A stretch of 64,000 nt of DNA from Roseibium aggregatum IAM 12614 (GTDB lineage Bacteria > Pseudomonadota > Alphaproteobacteria > Rhizobiales > Stappiaceae). Below, piece by piece: positions 30,456 to 43,636 of this stretch. The notes under the pieces were generated by a model. It searched no databases and was not told the origin of the DNA. It worked only from the letters and a program-made list of their open reading frames with translations. The stretch's first letter is position 1. The number at the start of each line of letters is the position of its first letter. Position numbers and translations under genes: made by a program. The stretch is from NCBI RefSeq assembly GCF_000168975.1, contig NZ_AAUW01000026.1, positions 1 through 64,000 on the forward strand, read 5' to 3'.

Positions 30456-30487
30456 ACCGGCCAGGCCTTGTGCCTGGCCGGTTTTTT
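30456..30487 (+). terminator. Rho-independent terminator after the YHS gene
   Basis: An 11-bp stem ACCGGCCAGGC/GCCTGGCCGGT with a 5-nt loop and a T-run at 30482-30487. Confidence 0.92.
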
Positions 30488-30602
30488 ATGTGCCCTCTCA
30501 ACTGTTGCCCGAAGGTCAATCCGGCACGGCTCTTGCGTTTTCAACCACAGATACCTGAGACGCATCCCAATCCGGGACGCAAGCGAGCAATTGGCCGGAC
30601 CG

Positions 30603-31973
30603 ATGACACGTAACCTTTCGAAACTGAACCGCCGCGCGTTTCTAGCCGGGACAGCTTTGTGTCTTTCCGGGACAGTCGCCACGGCCCAGATGAAGGTTGC
30701 CGACCTGCGCGGCTCTATTGATTCCCAGGAACTTGGTCTTCTGCCCAATGCCGCCGACGACCAAAGCGCCCAGTTTCAAAATGCCGTCAACCGGGCAGTC
30801 GAGCGTGGCCGCGCCCTGTTCCTCCCAGCCGGCACCTACCCGGTCGCCAACCTGCGCCTGCCTTCCGGCACGTTGATTGTGGGCGTTCCCGGCAGGACAC
30901 GGCTTGTCTATCAGGGTGGTGGCGGCCAGTTGATCCGCGCCGAGGACGTGTCCAACGTCGGCCTGACCGGCATAACCTTCGACGGCGCCAATCGCTCCAT
31001 CGGCGATTTCACCGAAGGACTGCTCCATTTCATCGGCGTCAGGAACGTCACGCTGGACAATTGCGAGATCACCGGTTCTTCCAAGATGGGGCTTTTGCTG
31101 GACCGCTGTTCAGGCCGTGTCGAAAATTGCCGGATTTCCGGTGCTGCCGAAGCCGGCCTGCGCTCGAACGAGGCCGAGGGCCTTGCCATCACCGGCAACA
31201 CGGTGGCCGACTGTGCCAATGGCGGCATCTGGGTGCACCGCTGGCGTGAAGGGGAAGACGGCACGATCGTTTGCGGCAACCGGGTGGAGCGCATCGGCGC
31301 CCGCTACGGCGGCACCGGTCAGTTCGGCAACGGTATCAATGTCTTCCGCGCCCATGGCGTCATGGTTTCCAACAACCGTGTCGCGGACTGCGCTTTCTCA
31401 GCGATCCGCTCCAATGCCGGCTCCAACGTCCAGATCATCGGCAATTCCTGTCTTCGTTCCGGCGAAACCGCGATCTATTCCGAATTCGGCTTTCAGGGAG
31501 CGATCATTGCCAACAATATCGTCGACGGTGGCACGATCGGCATATCCATCGCCAACTTCATGGATGGCGGCCACCTGGCGGTCTGTTCCGGCAATCTGAT
31601 CCGCAACATCAAGAAGGAAGGCCCCTATCCGCCGGAAGTCGCCGGCTTCGGCATCGGCATCGCGGTTGAAGCGGACACAACGCTGACCGGCAATGTGGTC
31701 GAAGGCGCGCCGAAATTCGGCCTGATGCTCGGCTGGGGCCCCTACATGCGCAACATCGCAGCCTCCCAGAACGTGATCCGGGACTGCGGCACCGGCATTG
31801 CCGTTACCGTGGTCGACGGGGCGGGCGCCGCCGTGATCACAAACAACATCGTCCAGGGCTCGAAACAAGGCGCCATCAACGGCTTCCGCTGGCTCGAAAA
31901 AGCAACAGGCGAACTGAACGATGTTTCTGAATTCAGCAATCTCACCGTTCACGGCAATCAGGTGGCTGCCTGA
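30603..31973 (+). CDS. Tat-exported right-handed beta-helix repeat protein (TIGR03808-like)
   Basis: A 456-residue protein. A twin-arginine signal (LNRRAFLAGTALCLSG) is followed by pectate-lyase-like parallel beta-helix coils, seen as repeated N-x-V/I patterns: GVRNVTLDNCEITG, GLAITGNTVADCANGGIWV (landmark), VMVSNNRVADCAFSAI, NVIRDCGTGI. This matches the uncharacterised TIGR03808 family of alphaproteobacteria. It probably acts on or binds a polysaccharide in the periplasm, but no catalytic residues can be named. ATG 30603 was chosen for the Tat motif; the frame extends 45 codons upstream into the preceding terminator. Confidence 0.85.
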   Translation: MTRNLSKLNRRAFLAGTALCLSGTVATAQMKVADLRGSIDSQELGLLPNAADDQSAQFQNAVNRAVERGRALFLPAGTYPVANLRLPSGTLIVGVPGRTRLVYQGGGGQLIRAEDVSNVGLTGITFDGANRSIGDFTEGLLHFIGVRNVTLDNCEITGSSKMGLLLDRCSGRVENCRISGAAEAGLRSNEAEGLAITGNTVADCANGGIWVHRWREGEDGTIVCGNRVERIGARYGGTGQFGNGINVFRAHGVMVSNNRVADCAFSAIRSNAGSNVQIIGNSCLRSGETAIYSEFGFQGAIIANNIVDGGTIGISIANFMDGGHLAVCSGNLIRNIKKEGPYPPEVAGFGIGIAVEADTTLTGNVVEGAPKFGLMLGWGPYMRNIAASQNVIRDCGTGIAVTVVDGAGAAVITNNIVQGSKQGAINGFRWLEKATGELNDVSEFSNLTVHGNQVAA

Positions 31974-32059
31974 CCGCAAAACACGCTCATCCTCCAAGAC
32001 TTGCCGGCGACCGCTTCCTCCAGGCCTAAGGTAAAAACCGTACAAGTGGAAACGGATCG

Positions 32060-32867
32060 GCATGGATGCCATGGTCAAGCCATGGCGTGACGAGGGGGAT
32101 GGAAACGCTCAAGGCTTAGATCCAGCCAGCGCAATACGCATCTTAAGCCAAAAGACAGGCCACTTCTCAATCCCCGTCATTGCAGGGCTGGCCCCTGCAA
32201 TCCATGCCGTGACAGCGCCTCGAACGAAGGCTGCTCAAACAGAAACGCACCGGCGTGGATGCCATGGTCAAGCCATGGCGTGACGAGGGGGATGGAAACG
32301 CTCAAGGCTTAGATCCAGCCAGCGCAATACGCATCTTAAGCCAAAAGACAGGCCACTTCTCAATCCCCGTCATTGCAGGGCTGGCCCCTGCAATCCATGC
32401 CGTGACAGCGCCTCGAACGAAGGCCGCTCAAACAGAAACGCACCGGCGTGGATGCCATGGTCAGGCCATGGCATGACGAGGGGGATGGAAACGCTCAAGG
32501 CTTAGATCCAGCCAGCGCAATACGCATCTTAAGCCAAAAGACAGGCCACTTCTCAATCCCCGTCATTGCAGGGCTGGCCCCTGCAATCCATGCCGTGACA
32601 GCGCCTCGAACGAAAGCCGCTCAAGCAGAAACGCACCGGCGTGGATGCCATGGTCAAGCCATGGCGTGACGAGGGGGATGGAAACGCTCAAGGCTTAGAT
32701 CCAGCCAGCGCAATACGCATCTTAAGCCAAAAGGCCGACCACTTCTCAATCCCCGTCATCGCAGGGCTTGACCCTGCAATCCATGCCGTGACAGCGCCTC
32801 AAACGAAGGCCGTTCAGGCAGAAACGGAACGGCGCGGATGCCATGATGAGCCATGGCATGACCAAGG
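32060..32867. repeat. Four 193-bp tandem repeats plus a partial fifth
   Basis: Units begin near 32062, 32255, 32448 and 32641, with a partial copy at 32834-32867. The period is exactly 193 bp and the first three are almost identical. Each unit has two hairpins: GCCATGG-N5-CCATGGC at its start and ATTGCAGGG-CTGGC-CCCTGCAAT in the middle (copy 1: 32179-32201). The fourth copy is the most diverged. The 73-codon frames it contains are not credible genes because the period is not a multiple of three. It lies between convergent genes. Confidence 0.93.
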
Positions 32868-32936: not shown

Positions 32937-33737
32937 TCAGTCCAGCGCAAACCGCAGCGACAGGCAGGACAGGCCGCCATCGACCTTGCGGGCTTCGTGG
33001 GTCGGCAGAATGACGGTTGTAAAACCGGCCGCCTCGATGGCAGCCTGGGTTTTCGGATAGCCTTCCGGCACCATCACCACATCGTTCACGCGGATGACGT
33101 TAGCAGCATAGTCTTCGCCTTCCGGCACGACCACGATTTCACGGTCGCCGAAAAAGCCGCTGTCCGCCATCACCTTGGTCGCCAGGATAACGCCATCTCC
33201 AAGGGTGGAGCAGGCCGTCTTGAAATGCAGCACGCCTTCCGGCGTTTCGCAAACTTCAGCCTTGTACCCCCATTCGCCCAGCAGTCCGGCAAAGGCATCA
33301 GCGCCTTCCCGATCGGTACGGGCGGACAGGCCGATCAGGATGACATCATCCAGCATAAGGATATCGCCGCCATCGACATGACCGGTACCCGGCAGTTCGA
33401 CAACCTTGCCGAACCGGCTTTCCAGCGCGGCGCGGATCTCAGCGCCTTCCCCAGCACGGCTGGCCGCGCCCGGCCGCAGCTGAATAGCCCCTTCCGGCAG
33501 ACAGAAAGCCGGGTCTTCGACAAAGCAGCTGTCCGGAAAAGCTTCCAGCGGTGGCAGAACGTCGACGGTCAGTCCCGCTTCTTGCAACGCTTGCACATAA
33601 AGCTCATGTTCTGCCCGGAAGTTCTCGCCGCTCGGGTTGCCAGTATCCACCGCCCGGATACCGTCGGCCACACTGTCGGCAGGCGTACGGGTTATCGCAT
33701 GAGTAAAGTGGAAGGACAGACCGGGACGATGGGCCAT
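32937..33737 (-). CDS. ddaH: Dimethylargininase (DDAH)
   Basis: A 266-residue enzyme of the amidinotransferase fold that hydrolyses methylated arginines to citrulline and methylamines. Expected blocks are present: DSCFVEDPAF (69-78), HVDGGDIL (120-127), catalytic H171 in VLHFKTACS, and nucleophile C258 in GGLSCLSLRF. TGGAG precedes ATG 33737. The related arginine deiminases are longer, so DDAH is preferred. Its start overlaps the divergent GNAT gene. Confidence 0.87.
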   Translation of the reverse strand: MAHRPGLSFHFTHAITRTPADSVADGIRAVDTGNPSGENFRAEHELYVQALQEAGLTVDVLPPLEAFPDSCFVEDPAFCLPEGAIQLRPGAASRAGEGAEIRAALESRFGKVVELPGTGHVDGGDILMLDDVILIGLSARTDREGADAFAGLLGEWGYKAEVCETPEGVLHFKTACSTLGDGVILATKVMADSGFFGDREIVVVPEGEDYAANVIRVNDVVMVPEGYPKTQAAIEAAGFTTVILPTHEARKVDGGLSCLSLRFALD

Positions 33738-34199
33738 GAGAATACTCCAGTGACAAAAACAAGCGCTCAACCAGCCATCCGCAGGGCGAAATTGCAAGAC
33801 GCACCGCGCCTGAAAGCGTGCATCGACGCAGCCTATGCACCGGTAAAATCAACCCTGCCGGACTTGCCCGACGTCTCCGCCGGCATCGCCGCAGACATCT
33901 CACAGAACCATGTCTTCGTCGCCGAATTCGCGGACAGGATCATCGGCTGCGCCATTTTGGGTCTCAGCGGTACCAGCGCACATCTGATGAACCTTGCCGT
34001 CGATCCGGACGTCAAGGGCCGGGGCGTCGGCCGACGTCTGATCGAAGCGGCCGAGGCATTTGCCGGGAAGAACGGGGCGCGCGCGATGCATCTGGCAACC
34101 CATATAGGCATGCCGGAGAATATCGCGCTCTACACCCATCTTGGCTGGAGTGAAATGGAAAGAAATGGCAACAAGGTTTTGATGTCGAAGGACCTTTAA
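33729..34199 (+). CDS. GNAT family N-acetyltransferase
   Basis: A 156-residue acetyltransferase with the acetyl-CoA motif A: LMNLAVDPDVKGRGVGRRLI, followed by AEAFAGKNGARAMHLATH and NIALYTHLGWSEM. ATG 33729 overlaps the first codons of the divergent ddaH gene; GTG 33750 is an alternative leaving a 12-bp gap. The substrate is unknown. The tight divergence suggests shared regulation with ddaH. Confidence 0.82.
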   Translation: MGHENTPVTKTSAQPAIRRAKLQDAPRLKACIDAAYAPVKSTLPDLPDVSAGIAADISQNHVFVAEFADRIIGCAILGLSGTSAHLMNLAVDPDVKGRGVGRRLIEAAEAFAGKNGARAMHLATHIGMPENIALYTHLGWSEMERNGNKVLMSKDL

Positions 34200-38102: not shown

Positions 38103-39686
38103 GTGTCAGCACGCGCGGAGGCCGTTGCGCCTGAACAACCGTTGAAAATGGATGCGTCCCGCATCAAAACCGAACTCCTCGCCGGGCTGACCGTCGCCCT
38201 GGCGCTTGTCCCCGAAGCCGTGGCATTCGCCTTTGTTGCGGGCGTCAATCCGCTGGTGGGTCTCTATGCGGCATTCTTTGTCGGCCTGATCACCGCCTGC
38301 ATCGGTGGACGCCCCGGCATGATCTCCGGCGCGACCGGCGCCCTCGCCGTGGTGATGGTCTCCCTCGTCAGCCTGCACGGTGTGGAATACCTCTTCGCTA
38401 CCGTGGTGCTGATGGGCCTGATCCAGATCGTTGTGGGCCTGCTGAAGTGGGGCAAGTTCATTCGCATGGTCCCTCACCCGGTCATGCTCGGCTTCGTCAA
38501 CGGCCTGGCCATCGTCATCTTCCTTGCGCAGCTCGGCCAGTTCAAGGTTCCCGATGGCTCCGGCGGACTGACCTGGATGACGGGCTCTCAGCTTTATCTG
38601 ATGCTCGGCCTGATCGCGCTCACCATGGCCGTCATCTGGTTCCTGCCCAAGATCACATCGGCCTTTCCCGCGCCGCTGGCGGGCATTCTCGTTGTCTCCG
38701 GGCTCGTGCTTGGCTTCAATCTCGACACCCGCGCGGTCGGCGATCTGGCCTCGATTTCCGGCGGACTGCCCCAGTTCCACATTCCCATGGTGCCGCTGAC
38801 GCTCGACACATTGCAGATCATCCTTCCCTATGCCGTGATCCTGGCTGCCATCGGCTTGATCGAGTCCCTTTTGACGCTGAACCTGGTGGCCGACCTGACC
38901 GGCACCAAAGGCGGTGCTTCCAAGGAATGCCTTGCGCAGGGCACGGCAAACGTGGTGACCGGTTTCTTCGGCGGCATGGGCGGTTGCGCCATGATCGGCC
39001 AATCCATGATCAACGTGAAATCCGGTGCACGCACCCGGATCTCCGGCATTTCCGCAGCTCTTTTCCTGCTGTCCTTCATTGTCATCGCTTCACCGCTGAT
39101 CGAACAGATCCCGGTCGCGGCGCTGGTCGGTGTGATGTTCATGGTCGTGATCGGCACCTTCGCCTGGACCAGCCTGAAGATCATGCACAAGATCCCGCCG
39201 ATCGACGCGCTCGTGATGGTCATCGTCACCTGCGTCACCGTCTACTCGGATCTTGCGGTCGCTGTCGTTGTCGGCGTGATTATCTCCGCGCTCGCCTATG
39301 CCTGGAACGCCGCCAGCCGCATCCGGGCCCGCATCGGCACCAGCAAGGAAGGCTGGAAGGTCTACCGTCTGAGCGGGCCGTTGTTTTTCGGCTCCGCCAC
39401 CGGCTTTACCGACCTGTTCGATCCGCTGAACGACCCTGAAGACGTTGTCGTGGACTTCATCGATAGCCGCGTGGTCGATCATTCCGGCCTGGAAGCGATC
39501 GATGCACTGGCCTCGAAGTACCTCGCAGCCGGCAAGCGCCTGCACCTGCGCCATCTGTCTCCGGACTGCAAGAAGCTTCTGGACAAGGCCGGGAATCTTG
39601 TTGAAGTCTCGGTTCTTGAAGACCCCGACTACGAAATCGCCGTGGACTACGGTCATAGGTTTGACCGGGCGGAAAAAACCACCTGA
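38103..39686 (+). CDS. SulP family anion transporter
   Basis: A 527-residue inner-membrane transporter with 12-14 spans and a C-terminal STAS domain (about 430-515; VVVDFIDSRVVDHSGLEAID). The SulP signature near residues 25-70 is clear: LVPEAVAFAFVAGVNPLVGLYAAF (landmark: PLVGLYAAFFVGLI). SulP proteins move sulfate, bicarbonate, oxalate or C4-dicarboxylates; which one is unclear. GTG 38103 follows GGAG by 6 bp. A strong terminator ends the gene and an FNR-like box precedes it. Confidence 0.9.
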   Translation: MSARAEAVAPEQPLKMDASRIKTELLAGLTVALALVPEAVAFAFVAGVNPLVGLYAAFFVGLITACIGGRPGMISGATGALAVVMVSLVSLHGVEYLFATVVLMGLIQIVVGLLKWGKFIRMVPHPVMLGFVNGLAIVIFLAQLGQFKVPDGSGGLTWMTGSQLYLMLGLIALTMAVIWFLPKITSAFPAPLAGILVVSGLVLGFNLDTRAVGDLASISGGLPQFHIPMVPLTLDTLQIILPYAVILAAIGLIESLLTLNLVADLTGTKGGASKECLAQGTANVVTGFFGGMGGCAMIGQSMINVKSGARTRISGISAALFLLSFIVIASPLIEQIPVAALVGVMFMVVIGTFAWTSLKIMHKIPPIDALVMVIVTCVTVYSDLAVAVVVGVIISALAYAWNAASRIRARIGTSKEGWKVYRLSGPLFFGSATGFTDLFDPLNDPEDVVVDFIDSRVVDHSGLEAIDALASKYLAAGKRLHLRHLSPDCKKLLDKAGNLVEVSVLEDPDYEIAVDYGHRFDRAEKTT

Positions 39687-39712
39687 CGCGCCTTTCAAGG
39701 CATCGTTTCATG

Positions 39713-39747
39713 AGACCCGCACGGCATCGGCCGTGCGGGTCTTTTTT
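39713..39747 (+). terminator. Rho-independent terminator after SulP gene
   Basis: A 13-bp perfect stem (39713-39725 with 39730-39742) on an ATCG loop, followed by a T-run to 39747. Confidence 0.93.
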
Positions 39748-39878: not shown

Positions 39879-41693
39879 GTGGCAGCACGCAGGAAACTCT
39901 TCATCACGCCGACCCTTGCGACCGTCATCGGCAGCTTTGTGCTGATAACTGCGGCCGCCATCCTGATCATACAGGCTGTCACCTCATCGGAAGTCGTCAG
40001 GCGAATGGGCGGCGAACTGGTCGACATCGGTATGGATGCAGCGGAAACCGCGTTTGTCGAGCAACTGCACGCCGTCACCGAAACCGCCGAATTCACCCGG
40101 TTGACCTATCAGCGCAAGGAGCTGCCGCTCGACGATCCGGACCTCGTCCTGTCCTATCTCTATGGTGCGCTTGCCCCCATGGAGCAGGTGTCCTTTCTTG
40201 TGCTGGTGGATGAAAACGGCCAGGGCGTCGATGTCGACAGGGGCGATGCGGATGGCAAGCTGCTGGGCGGCGACGTCAACCTGGCGAAGGATATCCCGAT
40301 CCTCGTGCCCCTGTCGGAACGCGCCAAGACACAGACAGGCGCTTTCTGGAGCGAGCCGTTCTATATGCCGAACCGGGAGCACACCTACTACGTCTTCGTG
40401 CGCCCGCTCCATGAGGGAAAGACCTATCGTGGCAGCCTGATGATCGGCATGTCACTCGACAGAATGTCCGAAATCACCTGGCATGTTTCCACGGACGACA
40501 TAACCGTGTTCCTGATGAAGGAGGGATCGGACGAAATCGTCGCCCATCCGGACCTTCACAAGTCCTTTGGCGACCTAAGCAAGGATATGCCGCTGCTCGA
40601 TGTCACCCGGCTTCCCGATGCCTTTCTGGCCGGGTTCAACGATATGCCGAAGGTGGACAAGGCGTCCTTCGACATTTCCGAGGCCCTCGACATCTATTCC
40701 GGCACTGATCCAGACGGCGCCAAACGGTTCGTGATCCTGGAGCAGAAGAACAAAAACCTGCTGGGGCTTCCGGTCAGGATTGGCGTGCATTTTCCTGCCG
40801 AGTACCTGGATCAGCCGCTCAGGCAATTGCTGATGGCGCTTCTTGTGGGCGGCGGACTGCTTGTCCTGTCCCTGCTGGGCGCGGTTTTGCTGGCACGGCG
40901 GATCGCAAGGCCGGTGCAACGGGCTTCGGTTGCAGCCAGAGAAGTGGCAGACCTGAACCTTGAGGCTGTATCCCCCCTGCCCACCAGCATCATCCGGGAG
41001 CTGGATGATCTCTCCAAGGGCTTCAATGCCATGGTCGGCGGCTTGAAAGCCTTCAACCGCTACGTTCCGGCGACACTCGTTCGCAAACTCCTGCGCGAAG
41101 GCAGAGCAGATGCCCCGCCGGAGGAACGGGAGGTCGCGGTGCTGTTCACCGACATTGCCGGCTTCACCTCCGCCTCCGAAGGCATGACGGCGACCGAAAC
41201 GGCTGCTTTCGTGAACCATCATCTTTCCATGCTGGGTGCGGAAATCACAAAGGAAGGCGGCACCATCGACAAATACATCGGCGACAGCGTCATGGCGTTC
41301 TGGGGCGCTCCGGAGCGGCTGGAAAACCCGGCAGAACCTGCTGCGCGCGCCGCAATCGGAATGGCGCGGGCCATAAGGGCGGACAATCAGGCACGCATCG
41401 CCCGGGGCGAGGCACCGGTGCGCATCCGTATCGGCCTTCACATGGGCCCGCTTGTGGTCGGCGACATCGGTGCGCCTGAGCGAGTCAACTACACGGTGAT
41501 CGGCGACACGGTGAATGCCGCCTCCCGTCTGGAAAGCCTCGGCAAGGAGATCGACGCAAGTGCCGACGTGGTGATCCTCGTCTCAGGCGAGATCGCCAAA
41601 CGCCTCGACAGCACGATCGATCAGGAGGCCATTGGTCCGCACAAGGTCAAAGGCAAATCGGAAGCGGTCGAAGTAGTCCGTTTGCGCGGCTAA
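39879..41693 (+). CDS. Membrane class III adenylate cyclase, paralogue A
   Basis: A 604-residue protein: N-terminal membrane helix (about 12-35), a roughly 280-residue periplasmic sensor resembling Cache domains, a second helix (about 313-335), HAMP, then a class III cyclase domain. Catalytic residues are present: metal Asp D425 (LFTDIAGF) and D469 (YIGDSVMAFW), adenine-specifying K465 and D543, and N546/R550 (VNAASRLE). It should make cAMP in response to an extracytoplasmic signal. GTG 39879 has AGGA 8 bp upstream. A close paralogue follows directly. Confidence 0.9.
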   Translation: MAARRKLFITPTLATVIGSFVLITAAAILIIQAVTSSEVVRRMGGELVDIGMDAAETAFVEQLHAVTETAEFTRLTYQRKELPLDDPDLVLSYLYGALAPMEQVSFLVLVDENGQGVDVDRGDADGKLLGGDVNLAKDIPILVPLSERAKTQTGAFWSEPFYMPNREHTYYVFVRPLHEGKTYRGSLMIGMSLDRMSEITWHVSTDDITVFLMKEGSDEIVAHPDLHKSFGDLSKDMPLLDVTRLPDAFLAGFNDMPKVDKASFDISEALDIYSGTDPDGAKRFVILEQKNKNLLGLPVRIGVHFPAEYLDQPLRQLLMALLVGGGLLVLSLLGAVLLARRIARPVQRASVAAREVADLNLEAVSPLPTSIIRELDDLSKGFNAMVGGLKAFNRYVPATLVRKLLREGRADAPPEEREVAVLFTDIAGFTSASEGMTATETAAFVNHHLSMLGAEITKEGGTIDKYIGDSVMAFWGAPERLENPAEPAARAAIGMARAIRADNQARIARGEAPVRIRIGLHMGPLVVGDIGAPERVNYTVIGDTVNAASRLESLGKEIDASADVVILVSGEIAKRLDSTIDQEAIGPHKVKGKSEAVEVVRLRG

Positions 41694-41770
41694 CCCGCCG
41701 CCGTCGATGATCCTTGCAGTTACCCGTTTGGCCGATTTCCCCGCGCTTTGCCTCAAGACGTTATCGCGGT

Positions 41771-43636
41771 ATGGGTAATGAATTGAAATTCAGTCCGCAG
41801 GCCAGACACTTGCCCCTCAACAGGCGCCTTCACATCACGCCGACACTCACGACGGTTATCGGCGGTTTTGTCTTCATGACCGCAGCGCTTGTGCTGATCG
41901 TTCAGGCAGCAACATCCGAAAAGGTGGTGCGCAACCTGGGCGGATCGCTGATCAACTCGGGCATGCATTCCCTGGACCAGGCTTTCGCCGCCCAGATCGA
42001 AGCGGTGGAGGAAGCCAGTTCCTTTACCGTGGACGCCCTGGCCTCCGGCAGCATCCTGATGAGCCGCCCGCAGGAGGTCGCCGAATATATGTTCGGCGTG
42101 CTTTCGGCCATGGAGCATGTCTCCTTTGTCATCGTTGCCGACAAGAATGGCAATTTCATACAGGTCGACCGGGGCCGCGCCGACGGTATTCTTGTGCCGC
42201 AATTTGTGCCCAAAACCGACGAAACCCACGCGCTTGTAGGTCTGATATCCTCTTCGAGCAAAAAGACCGCCCCCTTCTGGTCCGGGCCGGCCTTCTACCC
42301 CCAGCGCCAGCACACCTACATTGCCCACGTTCAACCGATCCTTTCCCCAGGGCCTGAGGGCGGCGCATACGAGGGGCTGGTTCTCATGGCCATGTCCATG
42401 GAGCGCTTGTCGGAGGTCACAAGCGACATCTCCACCGGACTGGTTCAGGTGTTCATGATCAATCCACAGAGTTACGGCCTGATCGCACATCCGGCGCTGC
42501 CGGAAGTTTTCAACCTTCTGTCGCCGACCCATCCGTTGATTGATCTCGAGAACGTCCCGGACTCCTTTCTGAAAACCTTGCGATCAACCGAGCCGGTCGA
42601 TGCATCGGCCTACGGCATACGCCCGGGGCACGAAATGCGTGCCGGTTACGATGCCCTTGGCAAAAGGAGATTTGTCGTCATACAGAGCCCGGATCTTGGC
42701 CCGACCGGGCTGCCGCTTTCCATTGGCGCTCATTTTCCGGCAGAAATTCTGGAGCAACCGCTTGAGCAGTTGACCGATGCCATCCTGATCGGCATTGCGC
42801 TGCTTGGCCTGTCCCTGGTCGGCGCCGGTTTTCTGGCCCATCGCATAGGCCAGCCGATCCGCCGGGCAGCCCTGGGAGCACGAGCCGTTGCCGATCTGGA
42901 ACTGGACGCCGCGGAGCATTTGCCCGGCAGCTTTGTCCGCGAACTGGACGATCTGGCCAACGGCTTCAACTCCATGGTCGGCGGCCTGACCGCTTTCAGC
43001 CGCTACGTGCCGAAAACGCTCGTCCGGAAGCTTCTGCGTGAGGGCCGTGCGGAAGCACCGCCGGAGGAACGGGAGGTCGCTGTGATGTTCACCGACATCG
43101 CCGGGTTCACCTCCGCCTCCGAAGGTATGACAGCGACCGAAACGGCTGCTTTCGTGAACCATCATCTTTCCATGCTGGGTGCGGAAATCACAAAGGAAGG
43201 CGGCACAATCGACAAATACATCGGCGACAGCGTCATGGCGTTCTGGGGCGCTCCGGAGCGGCTGGAAAACCCGGCAGAGCCTGCTGCACGCGCCGCAATC
43301 GGAATGGCGCGGGCCATAAGGGCGGACAATCAGGCACGCATCGCCCGGGGCGAGGCACCGGTGCGCATCCGCATCGGCCTTCACATGGGCCCTCTTGTCG
43401 TCGGCGATATCGGTGCGCCTGAGCGAGTCAACTACACGGTGATCGGCGACACGGTGAATGCCGCCTCCCGTCTGGAAAGCCTCGGCAAGGAGATCGACGC
43501 AAGTGCCGACGTGGTGATCCTCGTCTCAGGCGAGATCGCCAAACGCCTCGACAGCACCCTTGAGCGCCGTCCGATTGGCCTGCACCAGGTCAAAGGCAGG
43601 GTCGAGCCGCTGGAGGTCGTGCGGCTGATCGGCTGA
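41771..43636 (+). CDS. Membrane class III adenylate cyclase, paralogue B
   Basis: A 621-residue paralogue with the same layout: membrane helix, periplasmic sensor, membrane helix, HAMP, cyclase. Catalytic residues are D442, D486, K482, D560, N563 and R567. The sensor half is strongly diverged from paralogue A, while a 494-bp catalytic block (43064-43557) is nearly identical to 41121-41614. ATG 41771 lacks a clear ribosome-binding site; an upstream TTG would add 19 residues. It is 77 bp downstream of A, so both may share a transcript. Confidence 0.88.
   Translation: MGNELKFSPQARHLPLNRRLHITPTLTTVIGGFVFMTAALVLIVQAATSEKVVRNLGGSLINSGMHSLDQAFAAQIEAVEEASSFTVDALASGSILMSRPQEVAEYMFGVLSAMEHVSFVIVADKNGNFIQVDRGRADGILVPQFVPKTDETHALVGLISSSSKKTAPFWSGPAFYPQRQHTYIAHVQPILSPGPEGGAYEGLVLMAMSMERLSEVTSDISTGLVQVFMINPQSYGLIAHPALPEVFNLLSPTHPLIDLENVPDSFLKTLRSTEPVDASAYGIRPGHEMRAGYDALGKRRFVVIQSPDLGPTGLPLSIGAHFPAEILEQPLEQLTDAILIGIALLGLSLVGAGFLAHRIGQPIRRAALGARAVADLELDAAEHLPGSFVRELDDLANGFNSMVGGLTAFSRYVPKTLVRKLLREGRAEAPPEEREVAVMFTDIAGFTSASEGMTATETAAFVNHHLSMLGAEITKEGGTIDKYIGDSVMAFWGAPERLENPAEPAARAAIGMARAIRADNQARIARGEAPVRIRIGLHMGPLVVGDIGAPERVNYTVIGDTVNAASRLESLGKEIDASADVVILVSGEIAKRLDSTLERRPIGLHQVKGRVEPLEVVRLIG

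What the first reader, a model, noticed from the sequence alone, without database searches (positions are those of the whole stretch)
39879..43636. Tandem adenylate cyclases with homogenised catalytic domains
The 494-bp blocks 41121-41614 and 43064-43557 differ at about 13 positions by eye, nearly all synonymous, whereas flanking sensor halves and even adjacent codons are strongly diverged. The boundary after GACAGCAC is abrupt. This is the mark of recent gene conversion keeping the output identical while the sensors diversify.
Basis: seen in the sequence. Interest (0 to 1): 0.65.

Follow-up and report, generated by a model that had tools for sequence, protein, structure and literature searches.

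The report
Sensor cyclase pair copying its output
Two neighbouring bacterial receptor genes have old, very different sensors but have copied most of their enzyme half from one another recently, and a sister species has done the same independently; this is a clear, well-bounded case of gene conversion, a known process.

Summary
Blocks 41121-41614 and 43064-43557 differ at 13 of 494 positions, 12 silent. The genes encode dCache-HAMP-class III adenylate cyclase receptors in a genome related to Roseibium/Stappia. Paralogue dS is 0.104 in the block but 1.46 in the sensor. Sensor and block trees conflict under AU tests. BW2's tract has another left edge, so both lineages converted separately after their split. 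'Keeping the output identical while sensors diversify' is weaker: near-identity holds in 2 of 5 tandem genomes, the other three being 77-86% identical in protein; sensors are under purifying selection (dN/dS about 0.15); the tract stops about 17 residues before the end of the Pfam cyclase match. Homology-limited conversion explains this without selection for identical output. New member of a known kind; TLR1/TLR6 is the nearest analogue found.

The parts
39879..41693 (+). cyclase gene A: TM - periplasmic dCache-like sensor - TM - HAMP - class III adenylate cyclase, 604 aa (TM helices by eye and predicted helices)
   Evidence: ORF; Pfam HAMP 337-390 and Guanylate_cyc 416-596; model; sensor fold
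41714..43636 (+). cyclase gene B, same architecture, 640 aa from TTG 41714; in-frame ATG at 41771
   Evidence: ORF; Pfam HAMP 373-425 and Guanylate_cyc 452-629
39984..40814 (+). sensor of A (dCache fold by prediction), diverged from that of B
   Evidence: AlphaFold2 pLDDT 89.4, Foldseek best hits chemoreceptor ligand-binding domains; sensor region 137/329 identical to B
41115..41614 (+). converted tract in A: 13 differences from B, all within 41138-41465
   Evidence: block dS 0.104 against 1.46 in the sensor
43058..43557 (+). converted tract in B (counterpart of 41115-41614)
41615..41690 (+). unconverted tail of A (last codons of the cyclase domain), groups with the orthologue, not the paralogue
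   Evidence: 17 orthologous against 0 concerted sites at 41614-41699 versus BW2
43558..43633 (+). unconverted tail of B
38103..39686 (+). SulP-like transporter gene, frequent upstream neighbour of the locus (context, not part of the conversion)
   Evidence: found in 17 of 24 named loci L039-L062; NCBIfam sulP and BicA both below their cut-offs
39712..39743 (+). terminator-like hairpin (14 pairs, T run) between SulP and gene A
   Evidence: that scan listed no such site between A and B

Best explanation
An old tandem pair of receptor adenylate cyclases is undergoing domain-confined concerted evolution by intragenomic gene conversion. SHOWN: about 500 bp of the catalytic half became nearly identical between copies A and B in this genome after it split from its sister species. 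The sister did the same separately, with a different left edge. Sensor, HAMP and tail kept the old A/B difference on both sides of the tract, as in a non-reciprocal (or double-crossover) exchange and not a simple unequal crossover. INFERRED: RecA-type homologous recombination between direct repeats 1.94 kb apart copies the stretch that purifying selection has kept alike. Sensors and tail are too diverged (about 52% and 64% identical DNA) to pair, so the tract ends where homology ends, and each conversion renews the substrate for the next. INFERRED: A and B are co-transcribed receptors that sense different periplasmic ligands and feed one cAMP pool. Homogenised output is then a by-product that is at least tolerated. 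The donor copy is not settled.
For: Block dS within genome 0.104 (focal) and 0.196 (BW2) against 0.42-0.45 between genomes; codon bootstrap 0 and 12 of 10,000. Silent-run shuffle test: focal 4, BW2 104 of 10,000. Site patterns focal versus BW2: at 39897-41079, 391 orthologous, 2 concerted, 7 cross; at 41120-41613, 1 orthologous, 33 concerted, 1 cross; tail, 17 orthologous, 0 concerted (the bin 41080-41119 has one cross site). Block tree pairs win_A+win_B (100/99) and BW2_A+BW2_B (100/86); AU rejects win_B+BW2_B (p 0.003), win_A+BW2_A (p 0.001) and the four B blocks as a clade (p 2e-7), or five with ECS25B3 (p 6e-7). Sensor tree holds four B sensors together (100/99), and AU rejects win_A+win_B (p 3e-46). 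BW2 left edge between 41067 and 41088, here 41115. E. coli tar/tap yardstick: two 30-codon windows 97-100% identical in protein but with pS 0.53-0.68, so selection on protein alone need not give pS 0.10. No GC3 shift in the focal block.
Against: Inside the block the orthologous site pattern is nearly impossible once A and B are alike, so the 33-to-1 count alone overstates the case; the dS comparison carries it. Only two lineages show recent tracts. R. sediminicola (block dS 0.69 within against 0.78-1.14 to focal/BW2 orthologues, intervals overlapping; its B block sits with the A gene of G016, 98/91) and HCUG1433-1 (dS 1.58, saturated) do not show it by shuffle test (6114 and 5677 of 10,000). 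For older B blocks an orthologous pairing HCUG_B+ECS25B3_B is not rejected (p 0.16). Import of one block into both copies from an unsampled relative is not excluded. No recombination experiment was done.
Confidence: 0.9

Rival explanations
1. Strong purifying selection or codon constraint alone keeps the catalytic block alike; no conversion.
For: The block is under strong constraint: orthologue dN/dS about 0.07, the six inspected catalytic positions invariant in 42 of 42 rows.
Against: Synonymous sites in the same block diverge between species (dS 0.42-0.45) but little between copies (0.104). E. coli tar/tap shows protein constraint without silent identity.
Confidence: 0.02
2. Selection actively favours identical catalytic domains in the two receptors (equal output, or ability to form A/B heterodimers with a shared active site), and conversion is retained for that reason.
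For: Two sister lineages converted independently. Class III cyclase sites form between two subunits (recalled knowledge). TLR1/TLR6 authors propose a comparable reason (PMC2077338, abstract seen).
Against: Three of five tandem genomes tolerate 14-23% protein difference in the block. The tract stops short of the end of the domain and seems set by homology. In one search, 29 of 37 genomes of the genus had a single match of 47-77%.
Confidence: 0.2
3. [quoted passage not shown]
For: Both genomes carry alike blocks, and the right edges nearly coincide.
Against: Within-genome dS is lower than between-genome dS in both, and left edges differ; AU rejects orthologous pairing.
Confidence: 0.04
4. Assembly artefact (collapsed or chimeric repeat) in a draft genome.
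For: The focal genome is a draft of 48 contigs; the last 149 bp of the tract are identical.
Against: A collapse gives exact identity, not 13 scattered differences. Misjoins swap flanks but do not create similarity. BW2, a separate assembly, shows the same phenomenon with another left edge.
Confidence: 0.02

Closest known systems
Mammalian TLR1/TLR6 gene conversion (PMC2077338; abstract and section list seen)
   Same: Tandem receptor paralogues; N-terminal part diverged and orthologous; a C-terminal region more alike within a species than between species, by independent conversions.
   Different: Mammals, nine species, a region of about 300 residues including TM and most of TIR, nearly the same in each species. 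Here bacteria, recent tracts in two species, left edges differ, and three other tandem genomes have drifted.
Paralogous chemoreceptors PctA/PctB/PctC of Pseudomonas (PMC6974571; passages and one section read) and Tlp2/Tlp3/Tlp4 of Campylobacter (PMC9769880; passages read)
   Same: dCache sensors under 56% or about 30% identical, with signalling domains over 96% identical or identical.
   Different: The Pct passages explain this by selection on the signalling domain; 'gene conversion' has 0 hits in that text. The Tlp paper uses the words once, for conversion to a pseudogene. Output is a chemotaxis signalling domain, not a cyclase.
Long-lasting concerted evolution in prokaryotes, 26 genes (PMC6053082; passages read)
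   Same: Paralogues in a genome closer than orthologues, attributed to recurrent conversion.
   Different: 'cyclase' has 0 hits in that text; 22 of the 26 genes encode proteins of stable complexes; the present case is confined to part of one gene.
Receptor-type adenylate cyclase arrays (GRESAG 4) of Trypanosoma brucei (PMC1855330; passages read)
   Same: Tandem receptor adenylate cyclases with gene conversion reported for an array.
   Different: Eukaryotic arrays; the passages seen do not describe conversion confined to the catalytic half.
Class III cyclases CyaC of Spirulina (1wc0) and CyaB of P. aeruginosa (3r5g)
   Same: Catalytic domain: best sequence matches and among the best domain fold matches; Thr at the Asp/Thr position (subclass IIIb recalled).
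   Different: Here a dCache sensor is attached; bicarbonate response was not tested.

Membership tests
Intragenomic gene conversion / concerted evolution | Paralogues closer within a genome than orthologues between genomes, at silent sites | tested here: met
   Block dS 0.104 and 0.196 within, 0.42-0.45 between
Intragenomic gene conversion / concerted evolution | Converted stretch bounded on both sides by unconverted paralogue-specific sequence (non-reciprocal) | tested here: met
   Orthologous site patterns on both sides, concerted inside
Intragenomic gene conversion / concerted evolution | Phylogenetic conflict between tract and flanks | tested here: met
   Trees and AU tests
Intragenomic gene conversion / concerted evolution | Recurs independently in several lineages (concerted evolution proper) | tested here: inconclusive
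   Clear in two sister lineages; a third (MAG ECS25B3) pairs A with B at 95/91 but with saturated dS; sediminicola and HCUG1433-1 unclear
Intragenomic gene conversion / concerted evolution | Physical exchange observed | not testable with these tools
   Needs a recombination assay
Class III adenylate cyclase | Guanylate_cyc domain above Pfam gathering score | tested here: met
   87.0 and 82.5 bits against 21.9
Class III adenylate cyclase | Two metal Asp, adenine Lys, Asp/Thr, Asn and Arg present | tested here: met
   D425, K465, D469, T539, N546, R550 invariant in 42 of 42 rows; roles recalled
Class III adenylate cyclase | Makes cAMP | not testable with these tools
   No assay
dCache sensor | Double PAS-like extracytoplasmic fold with long N-terminal helix | tested here: met
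   Predicted model pLDDT 89.4; best Foldseek hits are chemoreceptor ligand-binding domains, among them the dCACHE domain of TlpC; best E 5.6e-13, TM-score 0.67. Prediction, for sensor A only
dCache sensor | Sequence match to a Pfam Cache model | tested here: inconclusive
   The window's own sensor A matches none; dCache_1 matches 16 of 37 aligned sensors at E up to 1, best 2.6e-9

The most novel reading that the evidence does not exclude
Conversion keeps the two cyclase halves interchangeable so that A and B form heterodimers, giving a receptor in which two different dCache sensors gate one shared active site. Related bacterial receptor families with identical output domains would then also be maintained by conversion and not only by selection on the protein.
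Probability: 0.1. Interest if true: 0.65.

Novelty: new member of a known kind. Interest (0 to 1): 0.38.

Why it matters
It is a sharply bounded bacterial example of what has been reported for TLR1/TLR6: tandem receptors that keep different sensors while sharing their output half by conversion. It suggests a simple silent-site test for other bacterial receptor paralogues with near-identical output domains (Pct, Tlp), where the passages seen explain the identity by selection or do not raise conversion as its cause. It also warns that trees built on the output domain of such receptors can give the wrong orthology.

Tried and rejected
Purifying selection alone, a mutational cold spot, a single ancestral domain transfer and assembly error were considered and rejected on the dS comparison, the second genome and the edges. 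GC-biased conversion: no GC3 difference between block and sensor in the focal genes (0.762 against 0.766 in A; 0.738 against 0.718 in B). Donor direction: of the 13 differences, 6 have the A letter and 3 the B letter shared with both BW2 copies; 4 are mixed (counted from the table). These look like private changes after homogenisation and do not name the donor. The position of B blocks among A-type blocks mildly favours A to B but could follow from species history. Deletion between the repeats leaving A-sensor/B-tail genes: tails were printed and are too short to type.

The top 50 fold matches of the full-length model were all cyclases, so the sensor was folded alone. Sensor B was not folded.

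Literature: eight of ten searches used. No listed row (20, 20, 3, 12, 15, 12, 15 and 7 rows; longer result sets were cut) is, by its title and the start of its abstract, about domain-confined conversion in bacterial adenylate cyclases. That is not proof that none is in print.

Rows dropped: trees use loci L009-L062 only; six partial copies were left out and duplicates between collections collapsed, leaving 40 rows, plus win_B (41). The 3' piece of the ECS25B3 B gene was added as row 42 for the block tree. The named sed, HCUG and BW2 rows are L040, L048 and L039.
Full report
WHAT IS THERE. Two adjacent genes on the + strand, A (39879-41693) and B (41714-43636), encode proteins of one architecture: an N-terminal membrane helix (by eye), a periplasmic domain of about 280 residues, a second membrane helix, HAMP and a class III adenylate cyclase domain. 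The periplasmic domain of A folds, by prediction, as a double Cache domain (pLDDT 89.4; best Foldseek hits are chemoreceptor ligand-binding domains). Pfam does not recognise it in A itself, but dCache_1 matches 16 of 37 aligned sensors. By sequence the cyclase half matches CyaB of P. aeruginosa and CyaC of Spirulina best, and six catalytic positions are intact in 42 of 42 aligned rows (their roles are recalled). The nearest named genome is Stappia sp. BW2 (92% protein identity), followed by Roseibium and Labrenzia.

The two 494-bp blocks differ at 13 positions; 12 changes are silent. In 30-codon windows along the A/B alignment, DNA identity is 0.40-0.67 through the sensor and the second membrane helix, rises through HAMP and linker, is 0.93-1.00 in the block and falls to 0.61 in the tail. 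The tract spans 41115-41614; mismatches resume at 41615 directly after GACAGCAC. Pooled dS is 1.46 (sensor), 1.31 (HAMP and linker), 0.104 (block) and 2.91 (tail, few sites).

IT IS GENE CONVERSION. The opposite is found. Focal A/B block dS is 0.104 (95% 0.051-0.173), BW2 A/B 0.196 (0.116-0.301), while the four between-genome comparisons give 0.418-0.451. In joint codon bootstraps the within-genome value reached the smaller orthologue value in 0 (focal) and 12 (BW2) of 10,000. Outside the tract, orthologues group: 391 orthologous against 2 concerted sites at 39897-41079 and 17 against 0 in the tail. Inside, 33 concerted against 1 orthologous; that count is partly automatic once copies are alike, so the dS comparison is the main evidence. 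The block tree unites the copies of each of these two genomes, and AU tests reject the orthologous pairs (p 0.001 and 0.003) and a clade of four B blocks (p 2e-7). The sensor tree unites the B sensors (100/99) and rejects A with B of the focal genome (p 3e-46). Since the tails also follow orthology, a plain unequal crossover, which would exchange everything downstream, does not explain the pattern.

IT HAPPENED MORE THAN ONCE. In BW2 the alike stretch begins further upstream (two mismatches, 41083 and 41087, between 41067 and 41122) and most of its remaining A/B differences lie at other sites, so BW2 converted on its own after the split. Older events are likely but less certain. The B blocks of R. 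sediminicola, ECS25B3 and HCUG1433-1 fall among A-type blocks, HCUG1433-1's on a long, weakly placed branch; its union with the single B-type genes L037/L057 is rejected at p 0.02. ECS25B3 B pairs with ECS25B3 A (95/91), but that is a metagenome assembly, the gene is split over two contigs and dS is saturated. R. sediminicola B pairs with the A gene of G016 (98/91), not with its own A. For R. sediminicola and HCUG1433-1 the shuffle test finds no recent tract (6114 and 5677 of 10,000). AU does not decide whether their own A and B blocks belong together (p 0.34 and 0.23), nor whether HCUG1433-1 B and ECS25B3 B do (p 0.16); it rejects the three older B blocks as one clade (p 0.016).

DISTRIBUTION. 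Among the 37 genomes of the genus (the window's own included; E up to 1e-80), three have two full-length copies above 50% identity (G000, G025, G005) and G022 has one plus pieces of a second. Twenty-nine have one match of 47-77%, three only a match of about 33%, and one (G031) none. R. sediminicola is a further tandem genome. Most single genes resemble A; L037 and L057 have a B-type sensor (97/93). A SulP-like transporter is found upstream in 17 of 24 named loci L039-L062. In HCUG1433-1 the order is B then A. The SulP tree joins focal and BW2 (100/100) but leaves much of the genus unresolved. Duplication is therefore older than the focal-BW2 split, with later loss of one or the other copy as the simplest reading; the exact history is open.

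HOW IT PROBABLY WORKS. Shown: bounded silent-site homogenisation, separately in two lineages. Inferred: ordinary homologous recombination between direct repeats 1943 bp apart copies the only stretch still alike enough to pair. Purifying selection keeps the catalytic core alike, conversion renews that likeness, and the diverged sensor (0.52 DNA identity) and tail (0.64) bound the tract. In keeping with this, the tract ends in codon 579 although the Pfam cyclase match runs to residue 596. The constraint-only alternative is illustrated by E. coli tar/tap: protein identity 0.97-1.00 in two windows of the signalling domain, but pS 0.53-0.68 there.

Output identity is not generally kept: 163/164 and 159/164 residues in focal and BW2, but 141, 136 and 126 of 164 in the other three tandem genomes. 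The sensors are not seen diversifying: orthologue dN/dS is about 0.15 in both. Selection for identical output, including heterodimer formation, remains possible but is not shown.

COMPARISON. TLR1/TLR6 in mammals is the closest description found: diverged N-terminal half, homogenised C-terminal region, independent conversions (PMC2077338, abstract). In bacteria, PctA/B/C and Tlp2/3/4 show the same protein-level contrast; the passages seen attribute the former to selection and do not invoke conversion as homogenisation. Concerted evolution in prokaryotes has been surveyed (PMC6053082, passages). The present case is a new member of a known kind, unusually clean.

Noticed in passing
window 32049-32862: A 193-nt unit repeated head to tail 4.2 times (95% matches), downstream of the ORF 30468-31973 and just before the end of the minus-strand ORF 32937-33797.
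   Followed up: no
window 38103-39743: A SulP-like transporter lies upstream of the cyclase locus in 17 of 24 named loci and scores below the NCBIfam cut-offs for sulP and BicA. A strong terminator-like hairpin (39712-39743) separates it from gene A. The cyclase resembles CyaC, solved with bicarbonate, so a CO2/bicarbonate link is worth a look.
   Followed up: partly
L048 2962-6812: In Roseibium sp. HCUG1433-1 the pair is in the reverse order (SulP-B-A), so the tandem was rearranged or formed differently there.
   Followed up: partly
L036, L037, L038, L057: Some relatives carry a single gene at the same place, slightly nearer to B than to A; L037 and L057 have a B-type sensor (97/93 with the B clade) but a cyclase block outside the A-type group.
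   Followed up: partly
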